Assembly: GCA_965222935.1 (NCBI GenBank)
Contig: CBDCVA010000002.1
Location: 186,001 to 250,000 of the forward strand
Reading direction: 5' to 3'
DNA length: 64,000 bases
DNA from: CBDCVA01 sp965222935 [NCBI: Candidatus Latescibacterota bacterium]
Lineage (GTDB): Bacteria; Latescibacterota; CBDCVA01
Below the pieces are notes generated by a model. The model was not told the origin of the DNA. It saw only the letters and a program-made list of their open reading frames with translations, and made no database searches. The position numbers were made by a program, and so were the translations under genes. This document shows, in pieces, positions 32,113 to 47,390 of this stretch (its first letter is position 1; each line of letters begins with the position of its first letter).

Positions 32113-33246
32113 ATGAGGCGTATGCTGAAAGCCTTTGAGCGGAGGGGGCGCTGGCTTCTGGGCGGTGCGGCACAGATGTTCGCTCAGTCGGAACCCGTCA
32201 GCGTTGGAAGCATCACACAAGAGCGGATAAAGCGCATTCTGGTCGTTCGTCAGGACCGGCGGCTCGGCAACCTCACGCTGCTGGTCCCGCTTTTCCGCGG
32301 CCTCAGACGCGCTTTCCCGCGGGCGAACATCACGCTCTTGGCGGCCAAGTCTTTCGCACACCTACTCCGTCCCAGCGAAGGCGTCGACGGGGTCATTCCA
32401 ATGGACCACCAGCGCTGCCTGCGCGACCCCCTTGCGCTCTGGCGACTTGTCTGGCGCCTGCGCCGCGAGCGGTTCGACCTAGCCATTGATGCCAGTCACC
32501 CACACAGCTTCTCCCTGACGAGCGCATCCCTGACACGAGCATCGGGCGCACCCTACAGGCTCGGCCATGCTCATCATGGTCCCGCTCAACGATTCGTCAA
32601 CGTGACCGTGCCTTCGGCCGATGGCCAACAGCACGAGACGGAGTTGCAGTACCAGCTCTTGCGCCATCTCGCGCCCCACGTACCTATGCCGACGATGCGC
32701 GTGGCACTCGACGCTGATGAAGTGACAGCGGCACAACGCATCGCCGCACGCGAGGGCGTCGGCATGGATAGACCCATAGTCGGCATTCATCTGGGAGGGC
32801 GTGGCAAGAAAGCTTGGCCCGCCGAGCGGTTCGCAGCTCTTTCCGATGCCCTCATCGAGCGGCTCATGGTGGACGTTCTCGTGCTCTGGGGCCCTCGCGA
32901 CACGGAGCGGATCGCCGCGTTCAAGGGCGCTGCTCGGCGTCGTGTGTGTGACACCCAGCCTGCCACTGTCCGTCGACTTGCGGCGCTTTGGGCCGTTTGC
33001 GAGATGGCAATCAGCACCGACACCGGGCCGATGCATCTCGCCGACGCTGTGGGCGTCCCCACGCTCGCCATCTTTCAGCGCCCGAACGCGTGGCGATACG
33101 GTCCTCGGGGGACGCTATCGCGTGCGATCGCCGACGTTGGCGGAGTTGTGTCGGTCGCCTCAGTTCTAGATGAAGCGACGGCGATGTTTGAGGCCTCGCG
33201 GCGGTCCGCCTGGGGCCGTGTAGCCGATCCGGTCGCAGCCCACTGA
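32113..33246 (+). CDS. Glycosyltransferase family 9 protein (heptosyltransferase-like)
   Basis: 377 aa. GT9 blocks: ILVVRQDRRLGNLTLLVPLF near residue 42, GIHLGGRGKKAWPAERFAAL in the middle and STDTGPMHLADAVGVPTLAIF in the nucleotide-sugar domain. It differs from the first GT9 protein of the window in carrying a D-R-R-L-G-N loop, as in WaaQ- or RfaF-like enzymes. It probably adds a heptose or related sugar to the LPS core, and lies 19 bases after the polyprenyl synthase gene. Confidence 0.87.
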   Translation: MRRMLKAFERRGRWLLGGAAQMFAQSEPVSVGSITQERIKRILVVRQDRRLGNLTLLVPLFRGLRRAFPRANITLLAAKSFAHLLRPSEGVDGVIPMDHQRCLRDPLALWRLVWRLRRERFDLAIDASHPHSFSLTSASLTRASGAPYRLGHAHHGPAQRFVNVTVPSADGQQHETELQYQLLRHLAPHVPMPTMRVALDADEVTAAQRIAAREGVGMDRPIVGIHLGGRGKKAWPAERFAALSDALIERLMVDVLVLWGPRDTERIAAFKGAARRRVCDTQPATVRRLAALWAVCEMAISTDTGPMHLADAVGVPTLAIFQRPNAWRYGPRGTLSRAIADVGGVVSVASVLDEATAMFEASRRSAWGRVADPVAAH

Positions 33247-33406: not shown

Positions 33407-35962
33407 ATGCGTCGTATTGCACCCTGGAAGCCCATCCTTATCGGATTGGTGCTCATCGCCTCGGTCTGGTCACTGCTGCCGACCATCCGCTACTACGCGC
33501 TTTCACCCGACGACCGGTCCGCAATGGACCCGGCGGCGCTCGAACGTCTCCAGGAACGTCTCATCCGGCTCGGCCTCGATCTCAAGGGCGGCATGCACCT
33601 GGTCCTCGAGGTGGACCTATCGGAGGTGCCTCGCGAAGAGCATCGTGATGCCGTCAACGGCGTGCTGGACGTCATCAAGAACCGCGTCGATCAGTTTGGC
33701 GTCTCCGAACCCGTAGTGCAGGAGGAGGGGGAAGACCGGATCATCGTGGAGCTACCAGGCCTGGAGGACATCGGTCGTGCCCGCAAGCTGATCGGTGAAC
33801 GGGCGCAGCTCAAGTTTCAGATGCTCCGCGACTCTGAAGACCTTCGCTCGGTCCTAGATAAGCTTGATCGTGTCTATGCTGAGCGCGGTGACCTCACGCC
33901 CGCACCGCGGACGGGTATCTTCGGCGAGGAGATAGTTGAGGACAGTCTGCGGTACGCGCACCCGTTCACCCAGTACCTGACGGCACTCGGCTCGGACATC
34001 GCCGTCAGCGTCGATGACAAGCCGACCGTGGACCGGATGCTGGGCGATCCCGATGCTCTCAAGGCCATCGGGGGCACCAGCGAGTTCCTCTGGGCGCGGC
34101 GGGCCGAGGGCGAGTTCTACCCTCTGTACTTCATCAAGAGCAGGCCGGAGATGCGGGGCGACGCCGTCGCCGAGGCAAAGATCGAACGAGGCTCGGACTT
34201 CGACCCGCAGACAGCGGGCCAGCCGATTATCAACTTCGCCGTCAAGGACGAGGCCGCACGGTTGTTCAGCCGGGTGACGGGCGACAACGTGGGGAAGCGC
34301 CTGGCGATCGTCCTCGACGATGTCGTCTACTCGGCGCCCGTCATCCAAACCAAGATCCGCGACGGCCGGTCGATCATCACCGGCTCACGCACCACCGAGG
34401 AGGCCAAAGACCTGGCTATCGCCATCCGCACGGGCGCCTTGCCCGCTCCTGTGGACATCATCGAGGAGCGGACCATCGGCCCCTCACTGGGAGCCGATTC
34501 GATCCGTCAGGGCGTGCGCGCAGCGATCGTGGGCGTCGTGATCGTCACGCTCGTCATGGTCGCTTACTACAGGCTTTGCGGCCTCGTGGCCAACCTGGCA
34601 CTCGTGCTTAACCTCACCTTCGTTATGGCGATTATGGGGGGCCTAGGCTTCACGTTGACCCTGCCGGGCATCGCGGGCATCATCCTGACCATCGGCATGG
34701 CCGTGGACGCCAACGTGCTGATCTTCGAACGTATCCGCGAGGAACTGCGCGGCGGCAAGACGATCCGCGCCGCCATCGACTCGGGCTTCTCTCGCGCCAT
34801 CGGCACGATCCTCGACGCTAACGTCACGACCGTCATCGCCGCGATCGTCCTTTACCAGTTCGGCACCGGGCCCATCAAGGGCTTCGCCGTCACTCTTTTC
34901 TGGGGCATCGTTTCGAGCTTTTTCACGGCAGTCTTCATCACGCGCCTGATTCTCGATGTGATGACGCTCAAGCCCAACGTACACACCCTTTCGATCGGCC
35001 AGAGCGGTCTGTTCATCGGCGCGGGCTTCCCGTTCATCAATTGGCGCAGGCCCGCCATCGTCATCTCGTCGGCGGTCATCTTAGTGGGACTGGTTTTTGT
35101 GGGCGCCCGAGGCCTCAACTACAGCATCGATTTCGTCGGCGGCACGCTCATCGAGTACCGCTTCGACCCGCCCGTCACTGTAGGCGACGTGCGCCAGGCG
35201 CTCTCCAGTGTGCCCGTGGACGGCGGCACGATGGATCTCTCCGGCAGCGAGATCAAGCGGATCGGCGCAGGTGGGGGAGGCATCCTTGTGCGCGTCGGGG
35301 ACGTCGGACACGGGAGCACCACATCCGATGCCATCAGCGCCCAACTCAAAGAGGCTTTCACATCCCACATACCGGTCCCCGAACGCGACTGGGTGTTGCG
35401 CCTGGAGAAGGTTGGGCCCAAGATCGGCAGTGAGTTGAAGGCGGACGCCTTCAAGGCCATCATTGTCTCGCTCCTGGCGATCATCCTCTATGTCTGGTGG
35501 CGCTTCCTGCGCGTGGAGTTCGGCCTGGCTGCTGTCGCAGCGCTTTTCCACGATGTGCTCATCACCGTTGGCGTCTTCGCGGTTCTGTACCACGAGGTCT
35601 CGCTGGCCGTTGTGGCGGCGCTACTCACGATCGTCGGTTACTCGCTCAACGACACTATCGTCGTCTTCGACCGCATCCGCGAGAACCAGCGCACCATGCG
35701 ACGCGAGCCCTACAATTCGATCCTCAACCACAGCATCAATGAGTGCCTGTCGCGTACGGCCATCACCTCGCTCACCACGCTCATCGTCGTCGTTGCACTG
35801 CTCACTTTCGGCGGTGACGTCATCCGCACCTTCGCCCTGGCGCTGCTCATCGGCGTGTTCGTCGGAACCTATTCGTCGATCTTCATCGCGAGCCCCCTCG
35901 TTTACCTCTGGTACCGGCGCGCCGAGGCCCGTCAGCGCATTCGTCAAGCCGCGCGGGCCTGA
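33407..35962 (+). CDS. secDF: Protein translocase subunit SecDF (fused)
   Basis: 851 aa: SecD and SecF joined in one chain. The N-terminal helix is followed by LGLDLKGGMHLVLEVD (SecD D1), the large periplasmic domain (about 60-350), GPSLGADSI and the SecD membrane block with GMAVDANVLIFERIREEL. A second half starts near residue 530 with the SecF helix, LNYSIDFVGGTLIEYRF and GYSLNDTIVVFDRIRENQ. The protein uses proton flow to pull secreted proteins through SecYEG. Fusion is usual in Bacillota and Bacteroidota; most proteobacteria have two genes. yajC is not adjacent. Confidence 0.95.
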   Translation: MRRIAPWKPILIGLVLIASVWSLLPTIRYYALSPDDRSAMDPAALERLQERLIRLGLDLKGGMHLVLEVDLSEVPREEHRDAVNGVLDVIKNRVDQFGVSEPVVQEEGEDRIIVELPGLEDIGRARKLIGERAQLKFQMLRDSEDLRSVLDKLDRVYAERGDLTPAPRTGIFGEEIVEDSLRYAHPFTQYLTALGSDIAVSVDDKPTVDRMLGDPDALKAIGGTSEFLWARRAEGEFYPLYFIKSRPEMRGDAVAEAKIERGSDFDPQTAGQPIINFAVKDEAARLFSRVTGDNVGKRLAIVLDDVVYSAPVIQTKIRDGRSIITGSRTTEEAKDLAIAIRTGALPAPVDIIEERTIGPSLGADSIRQGVRAAIVGVVIVTLVMVAYYRLCGLVANLALVLNLTFVMAIMGGLGFTLTLPGIAGIILTIGMAVDANVLIFERIREELRGGKTIRAAIDSGFSRAIGTILDANVTTVIAAIVLYQFGTGPIKGFAVTLFWGIVSSFFTAVFITRLILDVMTLKPNVHTLSIGQSGLFIGAGFPFINWRRPAIVISSAVILVGLVFVGARGLNYSIDFVGGTLIEYRFDPPVTVGDVRQALSSVPVDGGTMDLSGSEIKRIGAGGGGILVRVGDVGHGSTTSDAISAQLKEAFTSHIPVPERDWVLRLEKVGPKIGSELKADAFKAIIVSLLAIILYVWWRFLRVEFGLAAVAALFHDVLITVGVFAVLYHEVSLAVVAALLTIVGYSLNDTIVVFDRIRENQRTMRREPYNSILNHSINECLSRTAITSLTTLIVVVALLTFGGDVIRTFALALLIGVFVGTYSSIFIASPLVYLWYRRAEARQRIRQAARA

Positions 35963-36009
35963 CGCACGCTTCCTACGTTCGTAGAGAGACCACGGGCGGA
36001 CGCCGTCGC

Positions 36010-38109
36010 CTAGAATTCGAGTTGGCGAGCGGAGCGGGGGGCCTCGGTCTGGTCTCGTCTCGCCTGCGGTCGGCCCGGACCGTGCAGGGGGCAGGTAACG
36101 GTCGGCTCGGTGCCGGATCTGAAGAGCTCCTCGACGCGATTGGGGCAGTACAGGGAGGCAACCTCGCCCGATTCGCGGCAGACCTCTAGCGTCGTGACGT
36201 CGGCTGGCGGGGGCGGGAAGTCAAGGATGGGCAAGTGCAGCGCTTGGTGGACCTCACGCATGAACTGCGCCCACACCGGCAGCGCGACGGCCGAGGCCGA
36301 GGATGTGTGGCCGCCCAGGGGGACCTTCTCATCGAAGCCGATCCAGACGCCCGCGACGATCTGCGGTGTGAAACCGATGAACCACGCGTCGGTGAAGTTG
36401 TCCGTGGTGCCCGTCTTGCCACCCGCAGGACGCTCGAACCCATACCACAGTCGCGCACCGCGGCCCGTCCCCTCCTTCATCACCGAGTGCAGCATATCCG
36501 TCATGATCGCCGCCGTGGGAGCTTCGAGCACTTCGGACCGCCTTCCGCCGTCACGCTCGAAGAGCACCTTGTCTGCACGATCCACCACCCGGAGCATCGT
36601 GATAGGCTCGACGCGCACACCGTAAGTAGGGAAAGTGGTGTAGGCGGCGACCAGCTCCCACAGCGTCACCTCCGAGGTGCCGATCGCCAGGGAGTAAACC
36701 GGCAGGATGGGCGAGCGGATGCCCATCTTGCGGGCAGTCTTGACGACCGCCTGAGGTCCCAATTTCAGCAGAAGGCGGATGGTCACGAGGTTGCGCGAGA
36801 GCTTCAGACCCTCGCGCAGGGTCACTTCACCCTGAAATTTCTTGTCGAAGTTCTCCGGTTGCCACATCGTCCCATCTTCCATTGGCACGGTCACCGGAGC
36901 GTCCAGGAGCCGGTCGGTCGCGCGCCAGCCGCGCTGGATGGCCGTAGTGTAAACGAAGGGTTTGAAGGCGCTGCCCGGCTGGCGTCGAGCCTGGGTCGTG
37001 CGATTGAACTTGCTCTCGGTGAAATCCCGTCCGCCCACCATCGCTAAGACGTGTCCCGTCTCGATGTCCACCGCCAAAAGCGCCCCCTGGACGGCCGTGG
37101 CTCGCAACGAGTCCTCCAGCGACGGATAGCTTCTTCGTCGCCGCTTACGGCCCTCCGCCGAGCCGTCGAAGCGTTTCTGACGCTCGGCGACCTGATGCAG
37201 CAGCGCCTCCTCGGCCAGCTGCTGTGCGCGGACGTCCAGCGTCGTTTTGACGCGTAGGCCGGTGTCGTAGATTGCGCGGGGGCCGAAGCGCTCTTCCAGT
37301 TGGCGTCGGATGTGCTCGGTGAAATGAGGAGCAATGCCGAGGTCAGGCGGCCGCGTGCGCAGAGCCGGAGGCTTCGCCTTGGCCTCCGCCGCTCCGTCGG
37401 ATGAAAGCCTTCCAGTAGCGACCAGTGCATCGAGCACCTCGTCGCGCCTACGACGCGCCCGATCGGGATTGCGAAAAGGTGAATAGGTGGTAGGAGCCTT
37501 GAGAAGGCCGGTCAGTAGGGCGCACTCGTCGAGGGTCAGGTCGGGCGTGCTCACACCGAAGTAGTAGTTGGCGGCCGCCTCGAGGCCGTAAGTACCGTGG
37601 CCGAAGTAGACCCGGTTCAGGTACATCGCTATGATCTCGTGTTTGGAGTAAGTTCGCTCGATCCGAACCGCCGTGAGGGCTTCCTTGATCTTGCGCGTGA
37701 GCGTCACCTCCAGGGTCAGGAAGATGTTCCGCGCGAGTTGCTGCGTGATGGTGCTCGCACCCTGCGCTATACGTCGTTCGCGGACGTTCACCAGCAGCGC
37801 CCGCGCTATGCCCGCCGCGTCCACGCCCCAGTGCGACCAGAACTTCCGGTCCTCCACCGCGATCACCGCGTCGATCATCTCCTGCGGGATGAGGTCGACG
37901 GGCACCACTTTGCGGCGCTCCTCGGCGAATTCCTTCAAAATCTGGCCGTCGCGCGCATATATTACGGTCGTCTGCTTGACAGGTATCATCTCCAGCTCAG
38001 CTAGGGACGGCAGATTGCGGCTGAAGACCACCACTAGCGCTATCAGGCCGACGAGTGCGGCAACCAGCGAGAGGAAGCAGTAGACGACGATGCGGCTGAT
38101 TAGACCCAT
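36010..38109 (-). CDS. Penicillin-binding protein 1A (bifunctional transglycosylase/transpeptidase)
   Basis: 699 aa class A PBP. An N-terminal signal anchor (about 7-29) is followed by the GT51 domain with VEDRKFWSHWGVD (catalytic Glu86) and GASTITQQLARN, then the transpeptidase domain with Ser380 in SAFK, SRN at 438-440 and KTGTT at 565-569. It polymerises and cross-links peptidoglycan. After the KTG box the C-terminus ends in a Pro-rich part with two cysteines (CRESGEVASLYC). It is convergent with secDF and divergent from tyrS. Confidence 0.95.
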   Translation of the reverse strand: MGLISRIVVYCFLSLVAALVGLIALVVVFSRNLPSLAELEMIPVKQTTVIYARDGQILKEFAEERRKVVPVDLIPQEMIDAVIAVEDRKFWSHWGVDAAGIARALLVNVRERRIAQGASTITQQLARNIFLTLEVTLTRKIKEALTAVRIERTYSKHEIIAMYLNRVYFGHGTYGLEAAANYYFGVSTPDLTLDECALLTGLLKAPTTYSPFRNPDRARRRRDEVLDALVATGRLSSDGAAEAKAKPPALRTRPPDLGIAPHFTEHIRRQLEERFGPRAIYDTGLRVKTTLDVRAQQLAEEALLHQVAERQKRFDGSAEGRKRRRRSYPSLEDSLRATAVQGALLAVDIETGHVLAMVGGRDFTESKFNRTTQARRQPGSAFKPFVYTTAIQRGWRATDRLLDAPVTVPMEDGTMWQPENFDKKFQGEVTLREGLKLSRNLVTIRLLLKLGPQAVVKTARKMGIRSPILPVYSLAIGTSEVTLWELVAAYTTFPTYGVRVEPITMLRVVDRADKVLFERDGGRRSEVLEAPTAAIMTDMLHSVMKEGTGRGARLWYGFERPAGGKTGTTDNFTDAWFIGFTPQIVAGVWIGFDEKVPLGGHTSSASAVALPVWAQFMREVHQALHLPILDFPPPPADVTTLEVCRESGEVASLYCPNRVEELFRSGTEPTVTCPLHGPGRPQARRDQTEAPRSARQLEF

Positions 38110-38280
38110 GATCCCGGCGAAGGCTCAAGACAAGGTGATGGCTCACCCGCGGCGGTGTGCATCCCTCGGACGCACCCCTTTTCTCATGCCCCGGCTCCGC
38201 GGAGGTTCCTCGAATTGTCAACGTCGGTCGGGCATAGCCACCGGCGTCGTCGAGCGAACGTCAGGGGCACAGGACACCCC

Positions 38281-39501
38281 ATGAAGCTCACTCCCCGCGA
38301 ACAACTCGAGGTCCTCCGACACGGCGCGATAGAGATCGTGAGTGAGGCGGCGCTCCTGGATAAGCTGGCCCGCTCGAACGAGACCGGGAAACCGCTCGTC
38401 GTCAAGCTTGGGGCCGATCCCACCGTGCCCGACATCCACCTGGGCCATACCGTCGTTTTACGCAAGCTGCGTGATTTCCAGGATTTAGACCACGATGTCG
38501 TCTTCCTCATCGGTGACTTCACCGCCATGATCGGCGACCCCAGCGGTGTGTCCAAAACGCGACCCCCCTTGAGCCGCGACAAGACCCGCGAGAATGCCCG
38601 CACCTATGCGGACCAGTGCGCGAAAATCCTCGACCCGAAGCGCACGCGCATCGCCTACAACAGTGAATGGTGCGCAGCGCTGACGTCCGAAGAAATCATC
38701 CAGCTCATGAGTCGCTATACCGTGGCGCGTCTTCTGGAGCGGGATGACTTCCAGCAGCGCCTACAGTCCGGCGCGCCGATCAGCGTCCACGAGCTCCTCT
38801 ACGTCTTCCTGCAGGCGTACGACTCCGTGGCCCTGCGCGCCGATATTGAGTTGGGCGGCTCCGATCAGCGCTTCAACCTGCTTGCCGCGCGCGACATCCA
38901 GCGCGCCTACGGTCAGGAGCCCCAGGTCGCCGTCATCATGCCGCTCATCGTCGGCACCGACGGCGTCCAGAAGATGAGCAAGAGCCTGGGCAACACGATC
39001 AGCGTCACGGACCCTCCCGATGAGATCTTCGGCCGCACGATGTCGGTGCCTGACGCAGCCCTGGCCGAGTACTACGAGGTGGCCAGCACGTTCCCCCCCG
39101 AAGAGATCGCCCGCGCCCGAACGGCCCTCGAAGCGGGGACAGAGAACCCTGCGGTACTCAAACGGAAGCTCGCGCGCCATTTCATCGAGCGTTTCTGGGA
39201 CACCGAAGCCGGGCTCGCTGCCGAGGCGGCCTTCGACCGGGTGCACGTGGACCACCAGGCGCCCGAGGACATGCCGGTGGTCACCCAAAGGCGAGGGGAC
39301 AGCCCTCGCTGGATCGTGGACCTCCTGCGCGACGCCGATCTCGTCAACTCGGGTGGCGAGGCGCGGCGGCTCATCACCCAGCGGGGCGTCGCCGTGGACG
39401 GACAGGTCATCACCGATCCCAACGCTCAGATCCCTCTGGAAGACAATCTGATCCTCCGCGTGGGCAAGCGGCGCTTCGCGCGCGTTAAGCTGGAGAGCTA
39501 G
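38281..39501 (+). CDS. tyrS: Tyrosyl-tRNA synthetase
   Basis: 406 aa, TyrZ/TyrS long branch of class Ic. The HIGH motif is HLGH (53-56) after VKLGADPTVPDI, KMSKS is exact (QKMSKSLGNTISV), and an S4 RNA-binding domain ends the protein (NSGGEARRLITQRGVAVDG). ATG 38281 is preferred, with AGGA six bases upstream. It marks the left edge of the cassette island: the next gene is on the opposite strand and belongs to accessory sequence. Confidence 0.96.
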   Translation: MKLTPREQLEVLRHGAIEIVSEAALLDKLARSNETGKPLVVKLGADPTVPDIHLGHTVVLRKLRDFQDLDHDVVFLIGDFTAMIGDPSGVSKTRPPLSRDKTRENARTYADQCAKILDPKRTRIAYNSEWCAALTSEEIIQLMSRYTVARLLERDDFQQRLQSGAPISVHELLYVFLQAYDSVALRADIELGGSDQRFNLLAARDIQRAYGQEPQVAVIMPLIVGTDGVQKMSKSLGNTISVTDPPDEIFGRTMSVPDAALAEYYEVASTFPPEEIARARTALEAGTENPAVLKRKLARHFIERFWDTEAGLAAEAAFDRVHVDHQAPEDMPVVTQRRGDSPRWIVDLLRDADLVNSGGEARRLITQRGVAVDGQVITDPNAQIPLEDNLILRVGKRRFARVKLES

Positions 39502-39550
39502 CGCTCGGGACTAGGGGGCCGCTCCAACGTCAGGGATCACCGCCTGCCAT

Positions 39551-40186
39551 TCAGTTCTGCTTCGCAGACATCGCCGCGAGTCGTTTGAACGCTGTCGGCA
39601 CTGGGCCGTCTCCGAGGCGCCGTCGTATCACCTCGGCACACTCACCCGGGCTCAGCGACGAGGTGTCGACTTCGAGGTCATAGATACCCGGAATGTGCAC
39701 TTCACGTTGAAACCGGTGAACCGGTGCTGGCACAGATGAGTCTGCTGAACCTGCTGCGCCCCACGTGTTTCGTCGTCGTTCCATGATGACTTCGATGGGG
39801 CAGCGAACTCCCACGAACAAGACAGGCAACCCCTTTAGACGCCGGGCACTATCGGCGAGAATCTCCCGGGAGGTTGCGTAGGCGTCATGGTGTCCGACAT
39901 CCACTACGACGTTTAGGCCCAATCGGCTGTGGGCGGCAATGGACTCATACATGGCTGAGTAAAACAAGGTTATGAGAGGCTCTAGGTCCGGACGCTCTCC
40001 TCCGGGACGTAGCCCGATCCCGGGACTATAGCGTTTCGGCGTGACGTGCTCCTTGAACGTATCGACACCCAGGTTCATCCATGGGCCATCGAAAGTTTCC
40101 TGGATCACTGCGACGATGCTCGACTTACCTGATCGCGGGACACCGTTCAGGATGATGATCTGTCCTAGTTCTTTCGGCTGCACCAT
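39551..40186 (-). CDS. Chloramphenicol phosphotransferase-like P-loop kinase
   Basis: 211 aa. The P-loop GVPRSGKSS (from residue 15) follows a hydrophobic strand (QIIILN), and NVVVDVGHH and VGVRCPIEVIMERRR match the CPT/AAA-type small-molecule kinase fold. CPT enzymes inactivate chloramphenicol by phosphorylating its 3-hydroxyl; many cassette-borne relatives have unknown substrates, so resistance is not claimed. ATG 40186 is chosen because the P-loop follows at the normal distance. The gene begins 30 bases after the GTTAGGC core of attC-like site 1, as the next cassette would. Confidence 0.75.
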   Translation of the reverse strand: MVQPKELGQIIILNGVPRSGKSSIVAVIQETFDGPWMNLGVDTFKEHVTPKRYSPGIGLRPGGERPDLEPLITLFYSAMYESIAAHSRLGLNVVVDVGHHDAYATSREILADSARRLKGLPVLFVGVRCPIEVIMERRRNTWGAAGSADSSVPAPVHRFQREVHIPGIYDLEVDTSSLSPGECAEVIRRRLGDGPVPTAFKRLAAMSAKQN

Positions 40187-40215
40187 GGTCTCTCGTGCCT
40201 CATACCGGTACCGCT

Positions 40216-40317
40216 GCCTAACGCTATAGGCTATGGCGCGCTGGCCCGGCACCCTGCACCTGCAGAATGCTCGAATAGGCAAGCGGGGCCTGCGTCGCCT
40301 TCATCCAGTGGTTAGGC
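40216..40317 (-). mobile_element. attC-like recombination site 1 (102 bp)
   Basis: On the plus strand the outer boxes are GCCTAAC (40216-40222) and GTTAGGC (40311-40317), exact complements that fit the attC core RYYYAAC/GTTRRRY. Inside, GGCGCGC (40235-40241) pairs with GCG + CGCC (40292-40294, 40296-40299), leaving one unpaired T at 40295, and GGCCC (40243-40247) pairs with GGGCC (40286-40290). Outer R boxes, an unpaired spacer, inner boxes with an extrahelical base and a loop are the attC architecture. The DinB stop lies 20 bases before it and the CPT start 30 bases after it on the minus strand. Confidence 0.7.
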
Positions 40318-40337
40318 TGTACGAGTAGCCCCCGCCC

Positions 40338-41154
40338 TCACGATCTACCGGAGAAATCACGAAGGATCCGACGGATGTTCTTCGTATGGATCAACTCATG
40401 CCAGACAAGCCTGCGGAGAACCTTGCGGAGAGACCAGCAGTCGTCAGACTCCTCGTGAACCCTCTTGCAATCGGGAGAACGTGCGACCTCACGCAAGAAC
40501 GCGACCGTCTCACCCCGAGTACGCTCGAGCAAATTCTGCCAGTCGCGGCCTAGCGCTGCGTACCAGCCGCGGCTCCCTGGTTTCGGATTTCCAACCGCTG
40601 GTGGATTGGGCCCGAGGTCGTAGCCGATGCCGGGAAGATAGTAACGCGTCTCGCAGATGGCTATATGCGCAAGTACCTCACCGATCGTGCGCCATTGCGC
40701 CCAGGAAGGCATACCTCTCGTATGGCGGGTCCCACGTGAACGCCGCGTCGGGGGCAGAAGCAAGCACCTCTAAGAGATCGGCCCGCGACCACATGAGCAG
40801 TTGAATCGTGCGCTCAATCTGGTCCATTGAAGCCTCTTTCCAGTCGTCCTCGAAGAGGCCCTCGTCCGCCCCAACGAGCCGCTCAGCGACGATAGGTTCC
40901 ACCTGTCCGAAGTCGCAAGCGTCGTCCTTCCGGTCGTGGCGGCCTACGAACTCGCAGTACTCGGCGACGGCCCTCGGGACCTTGGCGAGAGCTTCCACCT
41001 CCGTCGGAGCAAATGCGGCGCAGCCGATAAGGTCGAGAACCCAAACGAGACACTCGTCGGGATCGCCGCCGCGATCGATGTGAACGCGTACCAGCGTTTT
41101 CGCCGTCGCGCTCGCAGAATCGATCACGGCGTCCTCCTCAAGCAAGGCGGGCAT
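40338..41154 (-). pseudogene. DinB-family protein with N-terminal HicB-like part, frameshifted cassette gene
   Basis: ATG 41154 begins six bases after the GTTAGGC core of attC-like site 2. The first frame (about 156 codons) has a HicB-like segment (VWVLDLIGCAAFAPTEVEAL) and the first DinB helix (MDQIERTIQLLMWSRADLLE), then stops at 40678. The rest of the four-helix DinB domain (TIGEVLAHIAICETRYYL, and RRLVWHELIHTKNIRRIL with the metal-site histidine) lies in another frame that ends at 40338. A frameshift at about 40685-40720 separates them. DinB/YfiT-like proteins are metal-dependent thiol transferases or of unknown function and are frequent in cassettes. Confidence 0.7.
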
Positions 41155-41160
41155 CGTGCA

Positions 41161-41220
41161 GCCTAACGGCCCGGGCATCACCTGCGGGCAAAGCGCGGCA
41201 GGTGCATGCCCTTCTGAGCC
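41161..41220 (-). mobile_element. attC-like recombination site 2 (60 bp)
   Basis: Core box GTTAGGC (minus strand; GCCTAAC at 41161-41167 on plus) is intact; the opposite box at 41214-41220 (GGCTCAG on minus) is degenerate, matching 4 of 7 positions. The arms GGGCAT + CACCTGC (41173-41185) pair perfectly with GCAGGTG + ATGCCC (41198-41211), leaving one extrahelical base at 41205. Size and layout resemble short attC sites of about 60 bases. The VOC scrap stops two bases before it and the DinB gene starts six bases after it. Confidence 0.65.
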
Positions 41221-41222
41221 TC

Positions 41223-41315
41223 CTAGAGATGGCGGTAAAACACAAGTCCATTCTGGTCGGGATCATGGATTCCGAATTCCTGCGTGCCCCCAGGCGTATC
41301 ACGGAGCCTGGTCCC
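41223..41315 (-). pseudogene. 3' remnant of a VOC (glyoxalase/bleomycin-resistance-like) gene
   Basis: The last 30 codons read RLRDTPGGTQEFGIHDPDQN followed by GLVFYRHL and TAG, the classic C-terminus of a vicinal-oxygen-chelate protein (REFGIxDPDGN). An in-frame TAA precedes it at 41316-41318, and no further part of the domain is found upstream, so the gene is truncated. Its stop is two bases before attC-like site 2, the position expected for a cassette gene. Confidence 0.65.
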
Positions 41316-41418
41316 TTACTGAGCCAATAAAACGTCGGATCGAATGGCCTTCTTCGGTGCCTACCACGCCAGCAGGGCGTCGTCCCTCTTCATGGCAGAG
41401 TTAGCCAAAAACAATGAC

Positions 41419-42018
41419 CTATCTATTGTTTGCAGAATCCGCGAGGGGATGAAGGTCGATCGGTGTGATCACCCCGTAGAATCCGTACTTGACGCCCGAT
41501 CGATCTCCTTTCCCAGGTGGAAAATAATCTTCGATGAGGGCTAGCAGTCGGCGGGTAAATTCCGCCGCCTGTTCCTTCGATAGTCGTGCGCGATTGTGAC
41601 TCCTTGCCACTACACGCGACGCGCCATATAAGCCCTCGGCGACCTCACGAAACGCCTGATTGAAATCGCTGGACACATCGCTAGGTATAGCCTCAGTATG
41701 AGCGTCATTCGGCGGAGACCTGTCGTGAACACGAATCTTGCCGACCAGAGGCCGACAACGCCGTTTCTGAGGGGCCTCATCCTCGTGTTCCAATAGGGTG
41801 GCGCTGGTTTGGGCGAGCCGCTTCACGTGGTACAGCACGCGGGCGTCGGTGACGCCCAAGGCCCGCGAAATCTCCGCAACCGACTTTCCGTCCCCAAGCG
41901 TCTCGAGAATACGCCAGCGAAGCGGATCCGTCACGACATCCGCGCGTTCATCGTCGATGACCAGTTCGACGTCGCTTAGCGATTCGATTGGGAACGCCAG
42001 TTCTCGCCAGCCGCCCAT
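41419..42018 (-). CDS. ArsR-type winged-helix transcriptional regulator
   Basis: 199 aa. The DNA-binding domain is at about residues 28-72: DPLRWRILETLGDGKSVAEI and SRALGVTDARVLYHVKRL form the helix-turn-helix of the ArsR/HTH_20 type. The C-terminal half is helical with no metal-binding cysteines, so it senses something other than a metal through the usual ArsR thiolates. The upstream region holds two copies of a 17-bp palindrome, which could be its operators (inference). Codon use is less GC-biased than in the nuo genes, in line with acquisition as part of the island. Confidence 0.78.
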   Translation of the reverse strand: MGGWRELAFPIESLSDVELVIDDERADVVTDPLRWRILETLGDGKSVAEISRALGVTDARVLYHVKRLAQTSATLLEHEDEAPQKRRCRPLVGKIRVHDRSPPNDAHTEAIPSDVSSDFNQAFREVAEGLYGASRVVARSHNRARLSKEQAAEFTRRLLALIEDYFPPGKGDRSGVKYGFYGVITPIDLHPLADSANNR

Positions 42019-42104
42019 TCAACTCTCCCGATGTAAAATCGAGACGGCCCCATGCTACGCTCTCCCAGCAATTTCATCCGTCGGAAATATCCGCCCAACA
42101 GTGA

Positions 42105-42121
42105 TTTTACAGTCTGTATGA
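42105..42121. promoter_or_regulatory. Palindromic operator-like site, copy 1
   Basis: TTTTACAGTCTGTATGA contains the perfect 11-base palindrome TACAGTCTGTA (42108-42118). It lies 87 bases upstream of the HTH regulator start and matches copy 2 at 15 of 17 positions. On the minus strand it overlaps a TAAAAT that could be a -10 element. Confidence 0.45.
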
Positions 42122-42182
42122 ACCGGCAGGGGCAGACTGATCTCCTCTGTATAGGCCGTGTCTGTCTTTCATGGTTCAGCAG

Positions 42183-42370
42183 CTAAATTCTTGCGACTCC
42201 ATAACATATCTCCGTTTGCCGCCTCAAGAGTCTGGGGCTTATACAGTCTGTATAAGACGGCTCGCAGCCCGTCGACGAGTTGCGGACGCCATGGCCGTCC
42301 CGGTTCAAGACGTGCCGTGTAGACCACGGTCGTCTGCAGATCCTTGTGGCCCGACACGTTATGGGATACG
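42183..42370 (-). pseudogene. C-terminal remnant of an integron-integrase-like tyrosine recombinase
   Basis: One frame reads SGHKDLQTTVVYT, with the conserved GH and the catalytic tyrosine (codon at 42319-42321); the next frame continues HVLNRDGHGVRNSSTG. Joined, they match the end of IntI-family integrases (LLGHKDVxTTxIYTHVLNRGGxGVRSP). Only the last about 60 residues remain, with a frameshift directly after the tyrosine. The 5' side runs straight into the 3' end of nuoN, so most of the gene was lost by deletion. It is the only recombinase trace in the window. Confidence 0.7.
42239..42255. promoter_or_regulatory. Palindromic operator-like site, copy 2
   Basis: TTATACAGTCTGTATAA is a perfect 17-base palindrome around a central T. 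It overlaps the end of the integrase remnant and is 134 bases from copy 1. It differs from the LexA box layout (CTGT-N8-ACAG), so SOS control is not suggested. Confidence 0.5.
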
Positions 42371-43885
42371 CGCACCCAGCTCCTGCACGACCTCGGGTCG
42401 GCCCGCGACGAGTGAGCGAGCGGAATCGCTCGTGACGCCGGAAAGGGCACCCCAGAAGATGCCGAAAAGGACCGTGCACACTGCGAGAGCGCCAGCTAGC
42501 GCGGTGTGAAGCCGTGGTGCGCCCAGAGGCTCCCCCCTTTCCCCAGCCTCAGCCGTCTCCAGGAACATGGCCTTGACGACGCGCGCGTAGTAGTAGAGCG
42601 AAACCGTGCTGTTGAGCACGCCGAGGACCGCCAGCCAGTACAGCCCGTCCTCGATCACCACGCTGAAAAGCTGAAACTTGCCGACGAAGCCCGCCAGCGG
42701 GGGTAGGCCGGTAAGCGAGAAGAGAAAGATGGTCATGCTCACGGCCAGAAAAGGCTCGCGGCCGCCCAAGCCTCGGAACGCTTCGATCTGGGCGGAACGC
42801 TCGCGCTCCACCAGGATGCCCACGACGAAGAAGGCGCCCAGGTTCATGAAGAGGTAGACGGCGAGGTAGAAGAGCATCGCCGAGACTGCCTCTAGGTTGA
42901 GCACCGCAGCTCCCATCAGGATGTAGCCCGCGTGGCCGATGCTCGAGTAGGCCAGGAGCCGCTTGACGTTCGTCTGGTGCAGTGCGGCGAAGTTCCCCAG
43001 GGTCATCGTGGCAGCCGAGAGGATCGCCAGCACCATCGGCATCGTGAGCCCGCCGCCCAGGTCGGCCAAGCCGTAGCCCCAATGCGCAAAGCGGATCAAC
43101 ATCGCAAAGCCCGCGGCCTTGGGTCCGACCGAGAAGAACGCCGCAACGGGCGTGGGCGCGCCCTCGTAAACGTCGGGACACCAGAAGTGGAAGGGCACAG
43201 CCGCGATCTTGTAGCCGATCCCCGCCAACACCAGCGCTGTCGCCAAGAACAGCGCGCCTGTCGCCTCCGCACCAGCGCCCGCCGCTAGCGCTGCACCGAC
43301 GTATCTGAGGTCAGCGCTGCCCGTGATGCCGTAGAGCAGGGAGATGCCATAGATCATCGCACCGCTCGCCGCCCCGCCGAAGATGACGTACTTGAGCGAC
43401 GCCTCGTTGCTCCTGAGGTTGCCCTTGGCCCATCCCGCCAACGCGTACGATGGGATGCTCACCAGTTCGAGCGACAGGTACATCATCAAGAGATTGCCCG
43501 CGTTCGCCATCCAACCGATGCCCACCACGGTGGCGACGAGCAGGGCGTAGAACTCCGCGGCTCGCTCGCGGACCCAGGGGAGCGAATAGGTGGTGACGAT
43601 CAGGCCCGCCGCGATCGCAAAGAGCTTGAAGAAGCCACCGAAGGCATCGTGGATCATCATGCCGCGGAAGAGCACAGCGTCGGGGACGCCCAGAACCCAC
43701 AGGGAGGGTATCGCGGCGAGGGCCAGGCCGATGACGGCGATGATCCCCGACTCGACTGGCCTGGATTGGGTGCGCAGCATGTCCACGGCCAAAATCAACG
43801 CAAGGGTCAGGATCAGAACGAGTTCCGAGCCTAGCATCTCGAAGCTGTCCCAGTCGCTCAGAAGCCGCATCGCGCTGAGGTTCAT
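42359..43885 (-). CDS. nuoN: NADH-quinone oxidoreductase subunit N
   Basis: 508 aa, about 14 membrane helices, the proton-pumping antiporter-like subunit at the end of the complex I operon. Family blocks FHFWCPDVYEGAPTPVAAFF, LLAYSSIGHAGYILMG and LTGLPPLAGFVGKF are intact. ATG 43885 has GAGGAG seven bases upstream. Its last residues (after about 495) have no counterpart I recognise, and the stop is followed without a gap by integrase-derived sequence, so the natural C-terminus may have been altered by the island. Confidence 0.95.
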   Translation of the reverse strand: MNLSAMRLLSDWDSFEMLGSELVLILTLALILAVDMLRTQSRPVESGIIAVIGLALAAIPSLWVLGVPDAVLFRGMMIHDAFGGFFKLFAIAAGLIVTTYSLPWVRERAAEFYALLVATVVGIGWMANAGNLLMMYLSLELVSIPSYALAGWAKGNLRSNEASLKYVIFGGAASGAMIYGISLLYGITGSADLRYVGAALAAGAGAEATGALFLATALVLAGIGYKIAAVPFHFWCPDVYEGAPTPVAAFFSVGPKAAGFAMLIRFAHWGYGLADLGGGLTMPMVLAILSAATMTLGNFAALHQTNVKRLLAYSSIGHAGYILMGAAVLNLEAVSAMLFYLAVYLFMNLGAFFVVGILVERERSAQIEAFRGLGGREPFLAVSMTIFLFSLTGLPPLAGFVGKFQLFSVVIEDGLYWLAVLGVLNSTVSLYYYARVVKAMFLETAEAGERGEPLGAPRLHTALAGALAVCTVLFGIFWGALSGVTSDSARSLVAGRPEVVQELGARIP

Positions 43886-43898
43886 CGCCCGCTCCTCT

Positions 43899-45371
43899 TT
43901 ATGATGAGGTCACCAGGCCCAAGAGGTAACCGGTGGAGGCTCGGATGAGGGCCAGAACGGGCATCGGGTAGACGCCCAGGATGATGACGATGATCCCCAG
44001 CGGCACCAATGTGACCACCTCGCGCGACGAGATCTCGGGGAAGTCCGCGTACTGTTCCTTCGGCTGGCCCATGAAGATGCGCTGGAGCATCCAGAGGATA
44101 TAGCCCGCCGTGAGGATGATGCCCAGCGCCGCGAGGATCGTGACCGTCCTGTAGACCGGGAACGCACCCAGAAATACCAGCGCCTCGCTGATGAAGCTCG
44201 ACAGTCCAGGAAGCCCCAGCGCGGCGAAGCCGGCTAGGCTCCAAAAGCCCGCGATGACCGGCACGTTCGATCCCAGCCCGCCGAAGCGGTCGATCTCGCG
44301 GTGATGCGCCCGATCGTAGAGCACTCCCACCAGAAGGAACAACATCGCCGTCACGCAGCCGTGGTTGAACATCTGGAGCACGGCGCCGTCCCAGCCCGCT
44401 TGGGTCATGACCGCCGTGCCCAAAAGGACGTAGCCCATGTGGCTGATGCTCGAATAGGCCACAAGTTTCTTGAGGTCGGACTGCGCCATCGCGCAGAACG
44501 CGCCGTAGATGATGTTGATGAGGCCCAACAGCGCGATCGAGTACGCGAAGTAGTGCGCGGCCTCGGGCAGCATCGGGTAGCTGATACGCAGGAGGCCGTA
44601 TCCTCCCATCTTCAGCAGGATGCCCGCCAAGATCACACTCACAGGCGTGGGTGCCTCGACATGCGCATCGGGCAGCCACGTGTGGAACGGGAAGACGGGC
44701 ACCTTGATGGCGAACCCGATGAACAGCGCTGCGAAAACCCATAGCTGGAACGTCCGATCATAGGAGCCGCTCTTCTGGATCAGCTCAAGCATATCGAACG
44801 TGTGCGGCTCAGTCGTGAAGTAGAATGCCAACATGGCCAGAAGCATCAGGACCGAGCCCGCGAGCGTGTAGAGGAAGAACTTGATCGCCGCGTAGACCCT
44901 GTTAGGCCCGCCCCAGATTCCGATCAGGAAGTACATCGGGAGCAGCATCATCTCCCAGAAGACGTAGAACAGGAAGAAATCGAGCGAGACGAAGACCCCC
45001 TGCATGCCCGTCTCAAGCAGGAGAAATAGGGCGTGGTAGCCCTTGACCGATCCGGTGATGTTCCACGAGGCGATGATGCATATGAACGAGAGCAGCGCCG
45101 TCAACAAGACCAGTGAGATGGAAAGGCCGTCCACTCCCATCCGGTACCAGATATTGAATGGTGGAATCCAGGGCGTCTCCACGGTGAACTGCATGCCCGA
45201 GACGTTCGGGTCGAACGCCTTGTAGAGCCAGATCGCGAGCAGGACGGGGATCCCCGTAGCGACGAGCGACACAACGCGCATGGCCAACTCCCCCGTCCTT
45301 GGGATCGCCACCACGATGAGCGCCCCCAAAAGCGGGAGAAAGACCATCAACGTGAGCACCGAAGATTCCAC
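43899..45371 (-). CDS. nuoM: NADH-quinone oxidoreductase subunit M
   Basis: 490 aa, antiporter-like proton-pumping subunit. FHTWLPDAHVEAPTPVSVIL, LVAYSSISHMGYVLLG and the TM5 glutamate region (FYVFWEMMLLPMYFLIG) are diagnostic. Starts with GTG at 45371, with AGGAGG upstream. It lies 13 bases before nuoN in the operon. Confidence 0.96.
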   Translation of the reverse strand: MESSVLTLMVFLPLLGALIVVAIPRTGELAMRVVSLVATGIPVLLAIWLYKAFDPNVSGMQFTVETPWIPPFNIWYRMGVDGLSISLVLLTALLSFICIIASWNITGSVKGYHALFLLLETGMQGVFVSLDFFLFYVFWEMMLLPMYFLIGIWGGPNRVYAAIKFFLYTLAGSVLMLLAMLAFYFTTEPHTFDMLELIQKSGSYDRTFQLWVFAALFIGFAIKVPVFPFHTWLPDAHVEAPTPVSVILAGILLKMGGYGLLRISYPMLPEAAHYFAYSIALLGLINIIYGAFCAMAQSDLKKLVAYSSISHMGYVLLGTAVMTQAGWDGAVLQMFNHGCVTAMLFLLVGVLYDRAHHREIDRFGGLGSNVPVIAGFWSLAGFAALGLPGLSSFISEALVFLGAFPVYRTVTILAALGIILTAGYILWMLQRIFMGQPKEQYADFPEISSREVVTLVPLGIIVIILGVYPMPVLALIRASTGYLLGLVTSS

Positions 45372-45437
45372 TTCCGGCCTATCCTCCTTCTTGTCCTGCG
45401 CCTCTTGAACCGACTTGTCGTGAGCTCGCCGAACCGA

Positions 45438-47390
45438 TCAGATGAGCGTCACAGCGATGACCAGCACCACGAGCCCCAAGACCATCCCCAGAACGTAACT
45501 CTGTATCCGCCCCGTCTGAAGTCCACGCAGCCGCTCGCCAAAATTGAGCACACCGTCCGCTACCCCGTCGACGGCGCCGTCGACGACCGCCAGGTCAAAG
45601 CGGCCCGCCAAGTGGGCGTACCAAGCTGTCACACGCGCGGCAGCGTTGACCAGCCAATCGATCACCGCCAGGTCGAACCAGCCCAGCGCACCCTTGAGCC
45701 ACAGTACCGAGCGGATGACCGTAGCACCGTATAGCTCGTCCACATAGTACTTGTTATGGAGCGTCCTATAGGTCCCGGGGAAGCGCGCCGCGACGGCCGA
45801 AGCCGAGATGGTGCCCCTGAAATAGGTCAGGTACGCGAGGCCGATGCCCCCCGCGGCCACGAGTATCGAGAGCACCATCGCGATCGTGTGCGCACTGTGC
45901 GGCGCGTGGTGCACGGGGGCCGCATGCCCCAGCGTCGGCGTCGGGAAGAACCCGGGGAACCAGCCGCCCCACGCCGAGCCTATCGCCAGAGCACCCAACA
46001 GCATCAGGGGCCCCGCCATGACCCACGGGGATTCATGCGCATGCTCGAACTTGCCCACGTCCCGGGGCTCACCCGTGAAGGTGACGAACAGAACCCGGAA
46101 CATGTAAAACGCTGTCACCCCCGCAGCGCCGAAACCCAAAAACGCAAGCAGCAGGTGCTGCGGGTGGCCCATGACGAACGCCGTCACATCCGCCAGGATC
46201 GCGTCCTTGCTGAAGAAGCCGGAGGTGAGGGGCACACCGCTGATTGCGATAGTGCCGCAGAAGAAAGTCCAGAAGGTGACGGGCATCTTCCGCTTGAGCC
46301 CGCCCATCTCCCAGATCTCCTGGGTATGCAGCGCATGGATAACACTCCCCGCGCCCAAAAAGAGGAGCGCTTTGAAATAAGCGTGGGTGAACAGGTGATA
46401 CAGGCCCGAATTGTGGCCGCCCACCCCGAGCGCCATGATCATGTACCCGAGCTGACTGATCGTGGAGTAGGCCAAGACGCGTTTGATATCCGTCTGGGTG
46501 ATGGCGATCGTCGCCGCGAACCCCACCGTGATGGCCCCGGTGTATGCGATCACCACGAGCGCCGATGGACTGAACAGCGGGAACAGCCGCGCCACCATGT
46601 AGACCCCGGCGGCCACCATCGTCGCCGCATGAATGAGCGCTGAGACTGGCGTGGGACCTTCCATCGCATCCGGCAGCCAGACATGGAGCGGCACCTGCGC
46701 GGACTTGCCCACCGCCCCGCAGAAGAGGAGCACCCCGGCGACGGTCAGCAGTGCACCGTCGATCTGTCCCGCCGCGACGCCCCCGAAGACGCCCTCGTAG
46801 CTGACCGCGCGCGTGGCCGTGAAGAAGATCAGGATGCCCAGGAACATCCCCAGATCGCCGATGCGATTGGTCAGAAAGGCCTTCTTGCCCGCGTTGGCTG
46901 GCGCATTCCGCTCAAACCAGAAGCCGATCAAAAGGTAGGAAGAAAGCCCCACCAGCTCCCAGAAGGCGTACAGGCAGATCACGTTGTCCGAGAGCACCAG
47001 GCCCAGCATGCTGAAGGCGAACAGCGACAGATAGGCGAAATAGCGGCCGTACCGCGGGTCGCCCGCCATGTAGCCGACGCTGAACAGAAAGACCATCGAG
47101 GCGACCGTCGTCACCACGATGAGCATCAGGGCCGTGATGCGGTCGAGCAGCACTCCGGCACTGATCTGCAACTCGCCGACATCGAACCACGTCCACGACC
47201 GTGCCACCTGCCACGCAGGGTCGCCCGCCCGGACCGCGTTCACGAAGATGACGCAGGAGAGCCCCCAGGCGGCTAGCATGGCTGCGATGACGACCCAGTC
47301 GCCGCCCCTCGGCAAGCGCTTGCCGAGGAAGATCTGGACGACGAAGGCCCCAAGCGGCAGGAGTAGGATGGCCAGCGCCAGATCGATCAT
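45438..47390 (-). CDS. nuoL: NADH-quinone oxidoreductase subunit L
   Basis: 650 aa, the largest antiporter-like subunit, with the C-terminal extension that forms the lateral amphipathic helix along the membrane arm. CLYAFWELVGLSSYLLIGFW, HVWLPDAMEGPTPVSALIHA and VLAYSTISQLGYMIMALG identify it. A His-rich stretch (HAAPVHHAPHSAH) lies in a loop near residue 500. It begins two bases after the nuoK stop. Confidence 0.96.
   Translation of the reverse strand: MIDLALAILLLPLGAFVVQIFLGKRLPRGGDWVVIAAMLAAWGLSCVIFVNAVRAGDPAWQVARSWTWFDVGELQISAGVLLDRITALMLIVVTTVASMVFLFSVGYMAGDPRYGRYFAYLSLFAFSMLGLVLSDNVICLYAFWELVGLSSYLLIGFWFERNAPANAGKKAFLTNRIGDLGMFLGILIFFTATRAVSYEGVFGGVAAGQIDGALLTVAGVLLFCGAVGKSAQVPLHVWLPDAMEGPTPVSALIHAATMVAAGVYMVARLFPLFSPSALVVIAYTGAITVGFAATIAITQTDIKRVLAYSTISQLGYMIMALGVGGHNSGLYHLFTHAYFKALLFLGAGSVIHALHTQEIWEMGGLKRKMPVTFWTFFCGTIAISGVPLTSGFFSKDAILADVTAFVMGHPQHLLLAFLGFGAAGVTAFYMFRVLFVTFTGEPRDVGKFEHAHESPWVMAGPLMLLGALAIGSAWGGWFPGFFPTPTLGHAAPVHHAPHSAHTIAMVLSILVAAGGIGLAYLTYFRGTISASAVAARFPGTYRTLHNKYYVDELYGATVIRSVLWLKGALGWFDLAVIDWLVNAAARVTAWYAHLAGRFDLAVVDGAVDGVADGVLNFGERLRGLQTGRIQSYVLGMVLGLVVLVIAVTLI

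What the first reader, a model, noticed from the sequence alone, without database searches (positions are those of the whole stretch)
39551..42370. Relic integron cassette array between tyrS and nuoN
Seen: three accessory genes of classic cassette families (CPT-like, DinB, VOC) lie on one strand, two imperfect palindromes with GCCTAAC/GTTAGGC cores sit exactly at the gene junctions, and an integrase C-terminus lies at the high-coordinate end. Known: cassettes carry one gene plus attC, with the next gene starting close behind the GTTRRRY core. Inferred: this is a decayed chromosomal integron. The integrase remnant points the same way as the cassettes, as in inverted-integrase integrons, not class 1.
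Basis: partly seen in the sequence, partly recalled or inferred. Interest (0 to 1): 0.75.

Follow-up and report, generated by a model that had tools for sequence, protein, structure and literature searches.

The report
Fossil integron beside nuoN
This stretch looks like the decayed remains of a bacterial gene-capture device (an integron): the tail of its integrase, a probable capture site and a few captured genes are left, a recognisable but fairly ordinary kind of genomic fossil.

Summary
The finding holds up in the main. On the minus strand between nuoN and tyrS lies a relic integron whose integrase pointed toward its cassettes ("inverted" layout). attC1 (40216-40317) is strong: 36.6 bits, E 2.4e-7, with a covariance model built without the window, against 8.2 bits in the other orientation. 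attC2 (41161-41220) is marginal (12.9 and 15.9 bits, E 0.34 and 0.13), has one clean core, and is the second-best hit in the window with both models. The integrase tail (42282-42351, one frameshift inside) scores 113 on an IntI profile, against at most 43 in 72 control stretches and 52 on a Xer profile; family libraries do not recognise it. Added here: a probable attI core (GTTGGGC, 42093-42099), spaced as in five reference integrons, and a likely fusion of the nuoN end to the integrase remnant. CPT and a frameshifted DinB are confirmed; VOC is not. No whole genome or close relative is held, so an empty site could not be sought. New member of a known kind; modest interest.

The parts
42359..42403 (-). 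C-terminal end of the nuoN ORF that runs past its homologues; possible first piece of the integrase remnant (AGRPEVVQELGARIP)
   Evidence: NuoN homologues end near query residue 489-495 of 508 in 19 of 25 rows listed; resemblance to IntI p about 0.005
42282..42351 (-). Integron-integrase C-terminal remnant, one frameshift inside (profile positions 287-309 of 315)
   Evidence: not recognised by Pfam or NCBIfam
42093..42112 (-). Probable attI core (GTTGGGC at 42093-42099 with the 13 bases before it)
   Evidence: 182 bases behind the SPxD equivalent, 102-247 in five references; rank 2 of 127,962 positions with a matrix from those five
41419..42018 (-). HTH gene, open frame; possible first cassette, no attC behind it
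   Evidence: HTH_20 9e-7, 29.2 bits, over the cut-off of 27; GC3 0.62
41225..41400 (-). Broken coding remnant ending at a TAG just before attC2; VOC by eye only
   Evidence: frames; no Pfam hit, no plasmid match
41161..41220 (-). attC2, probable: clean R' (GTTAGGC), degenerate R''
   Evidence: R1 12.9 bits E 0.34; R2 15.9 bits E 0.13
40338..41154 (-). DinB-family cassette gene with a frameshift; start codon 6 bases behind the R' of attC2
   Evidence: DinB_2 1.7e-8 when both frames are given with X at the break; start and stop
40216..40317 (-). attC1
   Evidence: R1 36.6 bits E 2.4e-7; R2 35.7 bits E 2e-6
39551..40186 (-). CPT-like cassette gene, open frame; no attC found behind it
   Evidence: Pfam CPT 4.2e-50; 1grq E 4.6e-11; GC3 0.627

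Best explanation
An inverted-layout chromosomal integron once stood between nuoN and tyrS on the minus strand: nuoN, intI, attI and cassettes all read one way. When intact it would have worked as other integrons do: the integrase recombines folded single-stranded attC sites with attI to insert and excise cassettes. A deletion seems to have removed most of intI and the nuoN stop codon, leaving the integrase tail, which then gained a frameshift. Further losses took the attC of the last cassette, and apparently that of the HTH gene with most of the gene before attC2, and one frame of the DinB gene. With no integrase in place the array is frozen unless an integrase acts in trans; CPT and HTH may still be expressed. 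Shown by sequence: attC1, the IntI-type tail, gene order and orientation, the frameshifts. Inferred: attI, attC2, the deletion history, loss of activity.
For: attC1 36.6 bits, E 2.4e-7, model independent of the window. attC2 second-best hit with both models, same strand, at a gene junction. With default filters R2 finds these two and nothing else in the window, and nothing to E 10 in 51 nuo loci, 1,018,977 bases, or in 5 GC-richer ones, 62,472 bases. Integrase tail 113 against 72 control stretches (mean 27.6, maximum 42.8) and 52 for Xer. Same layout in 4 of 19 reference loci. Probable attI at a comparable spacing. Low GC3 of CPT, HTH and the DinB 3' part. CPT up to 75% identical to plasmid genes in Cyanobacteriota.
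Against: attC2 is not significant alone, and with filters off a third site (32383-32499) scores nearly as high with R2 (15.4 bits). Single-strand folding of attC1 is not unusual (z -1.36; 21 of 200 shuffles fold as well), weaker than two reference sites (z -4.3). Plain tblastn of IntI gives the tail 30-31 bits, and an unrelated place gives 31.6. No Pfam or NCBIfam family recognises the tail. The attI matrix ranks a place inside tyrS first. CPT and DinB relatives were not found in 297 genomes of G001's phylum, and no attC was found by three plasmid CPT relatives. No related locus with or without the island could be compared.
Confidence: 0.86

Rival explanations
1. A CALIN-type island: cassettes were inserted at a secondary site by an integrase acting in trans; the integrase-like tail and the attI core are coincidence or belong to another element.
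For: Only one firm attC; the tail is 23 profile positions long and unknown to family libraries; the attI core rests on five reference sites.
Against: IntI profile score far outside the null and above the Xer score; tail, attI core and cassettes in the order and orientation of the inverted references.
Confidence: 0.09
2. Not an integron: native or singly transferred genes with chance palindromes at their junctions.
For: attC2 is weak; folding of attC1 is unremarkable; complementary core pairs occur by chance now and then (mean 0.23 per shuffle).
Against: attC1 at E 2.4e-7 at the boundary of a gene and in the expected orientation, together with an IntI-type tail.
Confidence: 0.03
3. An intact integron made to look broken by sequencing or assembly errors.
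For: The DinB break looks like a single frameshift; the CPT and HTH frames are open.
Against: About 286 of 315 integrase profile positions are not found beside the tail, which no single-base error explains.
Confidence: 0.02

Closest known systems
Treponema chromosomal integrons and the T. phagedenis remnant (PMC3607928; passages read)
   Same: Integrase transcribed toward the cassettes; attC sites and cassettes left after loss of intI
   Different: There intI is gone altogether in T. phagedenis; here a piece of it and a probable attI remain. Different host; locus nuoN-tyrS
Xanthomonas integrons with inactivated intI downstream of ilvD (PMC12444791; passages read)
   Different: Different locus and lineage; I did not test the layout of the Xanthomonas integrons
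CALIN (PMC9024848; passages read)
   Same: attC sites without a working integrase; proposed there to be degraded integrons
   Different: The default call needs two attC sites and the second here is marginal; platform remnants are visible here
   Same: attC on the integrase strand behind its 3' end; GTTRGGC core 102-247 bases behind SPxD
   Different: Full-length integrases there; no closer kinship to the window could be shown

Membership tests
Integron (relic) | attC sites with R''/L'' and L'/R' boxes | tested here: met
   attC1 met; attC2 marginal
Integron (relic) | Integron integrase gene | tested here: met
   Met only as a C-terminal remnant; a full or working intI is not there
Integron (relic) | attI next to intI | tested here: inconclusive
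   Candidate core at 42093-42099; spacing and matrix rank agree, but a place in tyrS ranks higher
Integron (relic) | Single-gene cassettes on one strand, start close behind R' | tested here: met
   DinB start 6 bases and CPT start about 29 bases behind the R' boxes
Integron (relic) | Recombination activity | not testable with these tools
   Needs a bench assay
Inverted-layout integron | intI on the cassette strand, cassettes behind its 3' end | tested here: met
   Remnant and cassettes both on the minus strand in that order; same layout in 4 of 19 references
CALIN | At least two attC sites and no integrase nearby | tested here: inconclusive
   One firm and one marginal attC; IntegronFinder itself was not available
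XerC/XerD or other tyrosine recombinase remnant | Better fit to Xer than to IntI | tested here: not met
   Xer profile 52, IntI 113; the Xer score has no null of its own
VOC gene (41225-41400) | Match to a VOC family model | tested here: not met
   No Pfam family up to E 10 for 30 residues; the piece is very short

The most novel reading that the evidence does not exclude
Decay of the integron gave NuoN, a core subunit of respiratory complex I, a new C-terminal tail of some 13-19 residues taken from the integrase, so that a complex I subunit now ends in integrase-derived sequence, while the frozen array still offers attC1 to integrases acting in trans.
Probability: 0.35. Interest if true: 0.4.

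Novelty: new member of a known kind. Interest (0 to 1): 0.3.

Why it matters
It shows several parts of one integron platform in decay together (integrase tail, probable attI, attC, cassettes) at a housekeeping locus, in a lineage without close relatives in the collections searched, and fits the view that attC clusters without integrase are dead integrons. It also shows that the family libraries used here (Pfam, NCBIfam) do not see such an integrase remnant.

Tried and rejected
Rfam at 36000-46000 gave one sub-threshold match (P10). No whole genome is held for the window. Cassette relatives in a sample of G001's phylum: 0 of 297 genomes for CPT at E 1e-10 and 0 of 297 for the DinB 5' part at E 1e-4; the tool warns that such empty answers show nothing without a positive. 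Plasmids: no match for the DinB 5' part, HTH or the 30-residue piece. IMG/VR: no relative of CPT. attC beside three plasmid CPT relatives: none. Promoter-like sites 0 and terminator-like sites 2, both at the chance level. The core pair at 35339-35417 was rejected as attC (8.2 bits). The host was not identified; the best NuoM match is 67% (CP070770.1). The remnant is too short for a tree.

In one search several reference integrases were read on the wrong strand, and one of 30 (L104) was wrong; one search repeats the profile with the listed strands. The Xer profile rests on 17 of 28 proteins tried; the rest were lost to a motif filter, and its length condition applied to one motif only. The script stopped half-way; its spacing results stand, and the matrix was rerun.

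Full report
What is there. The window is 64% GC. Between tyrS (38281-39501, plus strand) and nuoN (42359-43885, minus) lie, on the minus strand and in reading order: an integrase tail (42351-42282), a probable attI core (42099-42093), an HTH gene (42018-41419), a broken remnant, attC2 (41220-41161), a frameshifted DinB gene (41154-40338), attC1 (40317-40216) and an open CPT-like gene (40186-39551).

attC. With filters off over the whole window it gives 18 matches to E 10: attC1 first (36.6 bits, E 2.4e-7), attC2 second (12.9 bits, E 0.34); the plus-strand reading of attC1 gets 8.2 bits. R1 found 107 matches to E 1 in 48 sources (40 genome stretches and 8 plasmid stretches). R2, built from those 107, the weak ones included, gives 35.7 bits (E 2e-6) and 15.9 bits (E 0.13), with a third site at 32383-32499 close behind (15.4 bits, E 0.17). 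With default filters the window gives these two only; 51 of the 80 nuo loci (1,018,977 bases) give none to E 10, and 5 nuo loci of 58-65% GC (62,472 bases) give none. The filters vary with the amount searched, so the large control is not strictly equal to the window search. By eye attC1 has the plan of the reference sites: R'', spacer, L'' with an unpaired base, loop, L', spacer, R'. Its folding energy on the minus strand is not unusual (z -1.36; attC2 z -2.17; references L129 and L121 z -4.3).

Integrase. Plain tblastn with reference integrases gives the tail 30-31 bits, but an unrelated place in the window gives 31.6, and no Pfam or NCBIfam family is called. A frameshift-tolerant alignment to a profile of 30 integron integrases (TIGR02249 matches) finds GHKDLQTTVVYT, a frameshift, then HVLNRDGHGVR at profile positions 287-309. 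With the reference strands corrected the score is 113; 72 other stretches of 350 bases give mean 27.6, sd 4.6, maximum 42.8; a Xer profile from 17 proteins gives 52, without a null of its own. The scale is my own, not HMMER's. Of 25 NuoN rows listed, 4 gave no end, 2 were weak matches starting at query residue 226, and 19 (3 of them the same genome twice) end near query residue 489-495; here the protein has 508. The last 15 residues resemble the part of IntI before the tail (p 0.006 against random peptides, 0.005 against shuffles). From the sequence some 25 bases lie between the two pieces. I read this as a deletion that joined nuoN to the integrase remnant; it is suggestive, not shown.

attI and layout. 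From 40 genome stretches with an integron integrase I took 19 with attC matches to about E 0.01; 4 with only weaker matches (L124, L127, L150, L159) were left out. In 4 of 19 (L123, L128, L129, L132) attC lies on the integrase strand behind its 3' end; in 15 of 19 on the opposite strand behind its 5' end. In those 4 and in L133 (similar integrase end, no attC match) a GTTRRRY core lies 247, 242, 223, 102 and 223 bases behind SPxD (order L123, L128, L129, L132, L133); in the window 182. A matrix from those five ranks the window site second of 127,962 positions; the first is inside tyrS. The region had been chosen beforehand by its place, not by the matrix. Two copies of a CAGACTGTA motif (42238-42256 and 42104-42120) may be integrase-binding repeats or an operator of the HTH gene; neither was tested.

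Cassettes. The CPT-like protein matches Pfam CPT (4.2e-50), the NCBIfam equivalog only far below its cut-off (69 against 250 bits), and solved chloramphenicol phosphotransferase (E 4.6e-11); whether it acts on chloramphenicol is unknown. Of 46 plasmid records with a match the nearest are 75% identical (three cyanobacterial records), then 65-67% in Sinorhizobium and Niallia. GC3 is 0.627 for CPT, 0.649 and 0.748 for the DinB 3' and 5' parts and 0.620 for HTH; 25 long ORFs of the window average 0.785 (sd 0.049, minimum 0.674; picked by length, not verified as genes). The VOC label is not supported.

Limits. No whole genome is held. The best NuoM relative is 67% identical (80 loci kept of 153), and none of 297 genomes drawn from its phylum is nearer. 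Loci L001-L120, of which only part are nuo loci, gave no TyrS match at E 1e-8, so an empty site could not be sought. In the phylum sample 107 of 297 genomes have an integron integrase over the TIGR02249 cut-off, so integrons are common there, if the window belongs there.

Known. The toward-cassette layout and loss of intI with remnants are described for Treponema (PMC3607928, passages); inactivated intI with frozen arrays for Xanthomonas (PMC12444791, passages); attC clusters without integrase as CALIN, proposed to be degraded integrons (PMC9024848, passages); attI directly behind intI in archaeal integrons, and typical Spirochaetota integrases in reverse orientation (PMC9668308, passages). 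The case is a new member of this kind. I make no claim that this locus is or is not in print.

Noticed in passing
42238-42256 and 42104-42120 (minus strand): Two copies of a CAGACTGTA motif, the first inside a near-perfect palindrome (CTTATACAGACTGTATAAG); possible attI repeats or an operator.
   Followed up: partly
phylum sample of G001: 107 of 297 genomes carry an integron integrase over the TIGR02249 cut-off; both layouts occur among those looked at.
   Followed up: partly
40678-41154 (minus): The N-terminal part of the DinB cassette protein has no Pfam family of its own; by eye it recalls HicB.
   Followed up: no
35339-35417: A fully complementary GCCCAAC/GTTGGGC pair that scores only 8.2 bits as attC.
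   Followed up: yes
L128 and L133, first gene behind the attI core: In both, the first frame behind the core begins like an AbrB/MazE-type antitoxin by eye; not searched.
   Followed up: no
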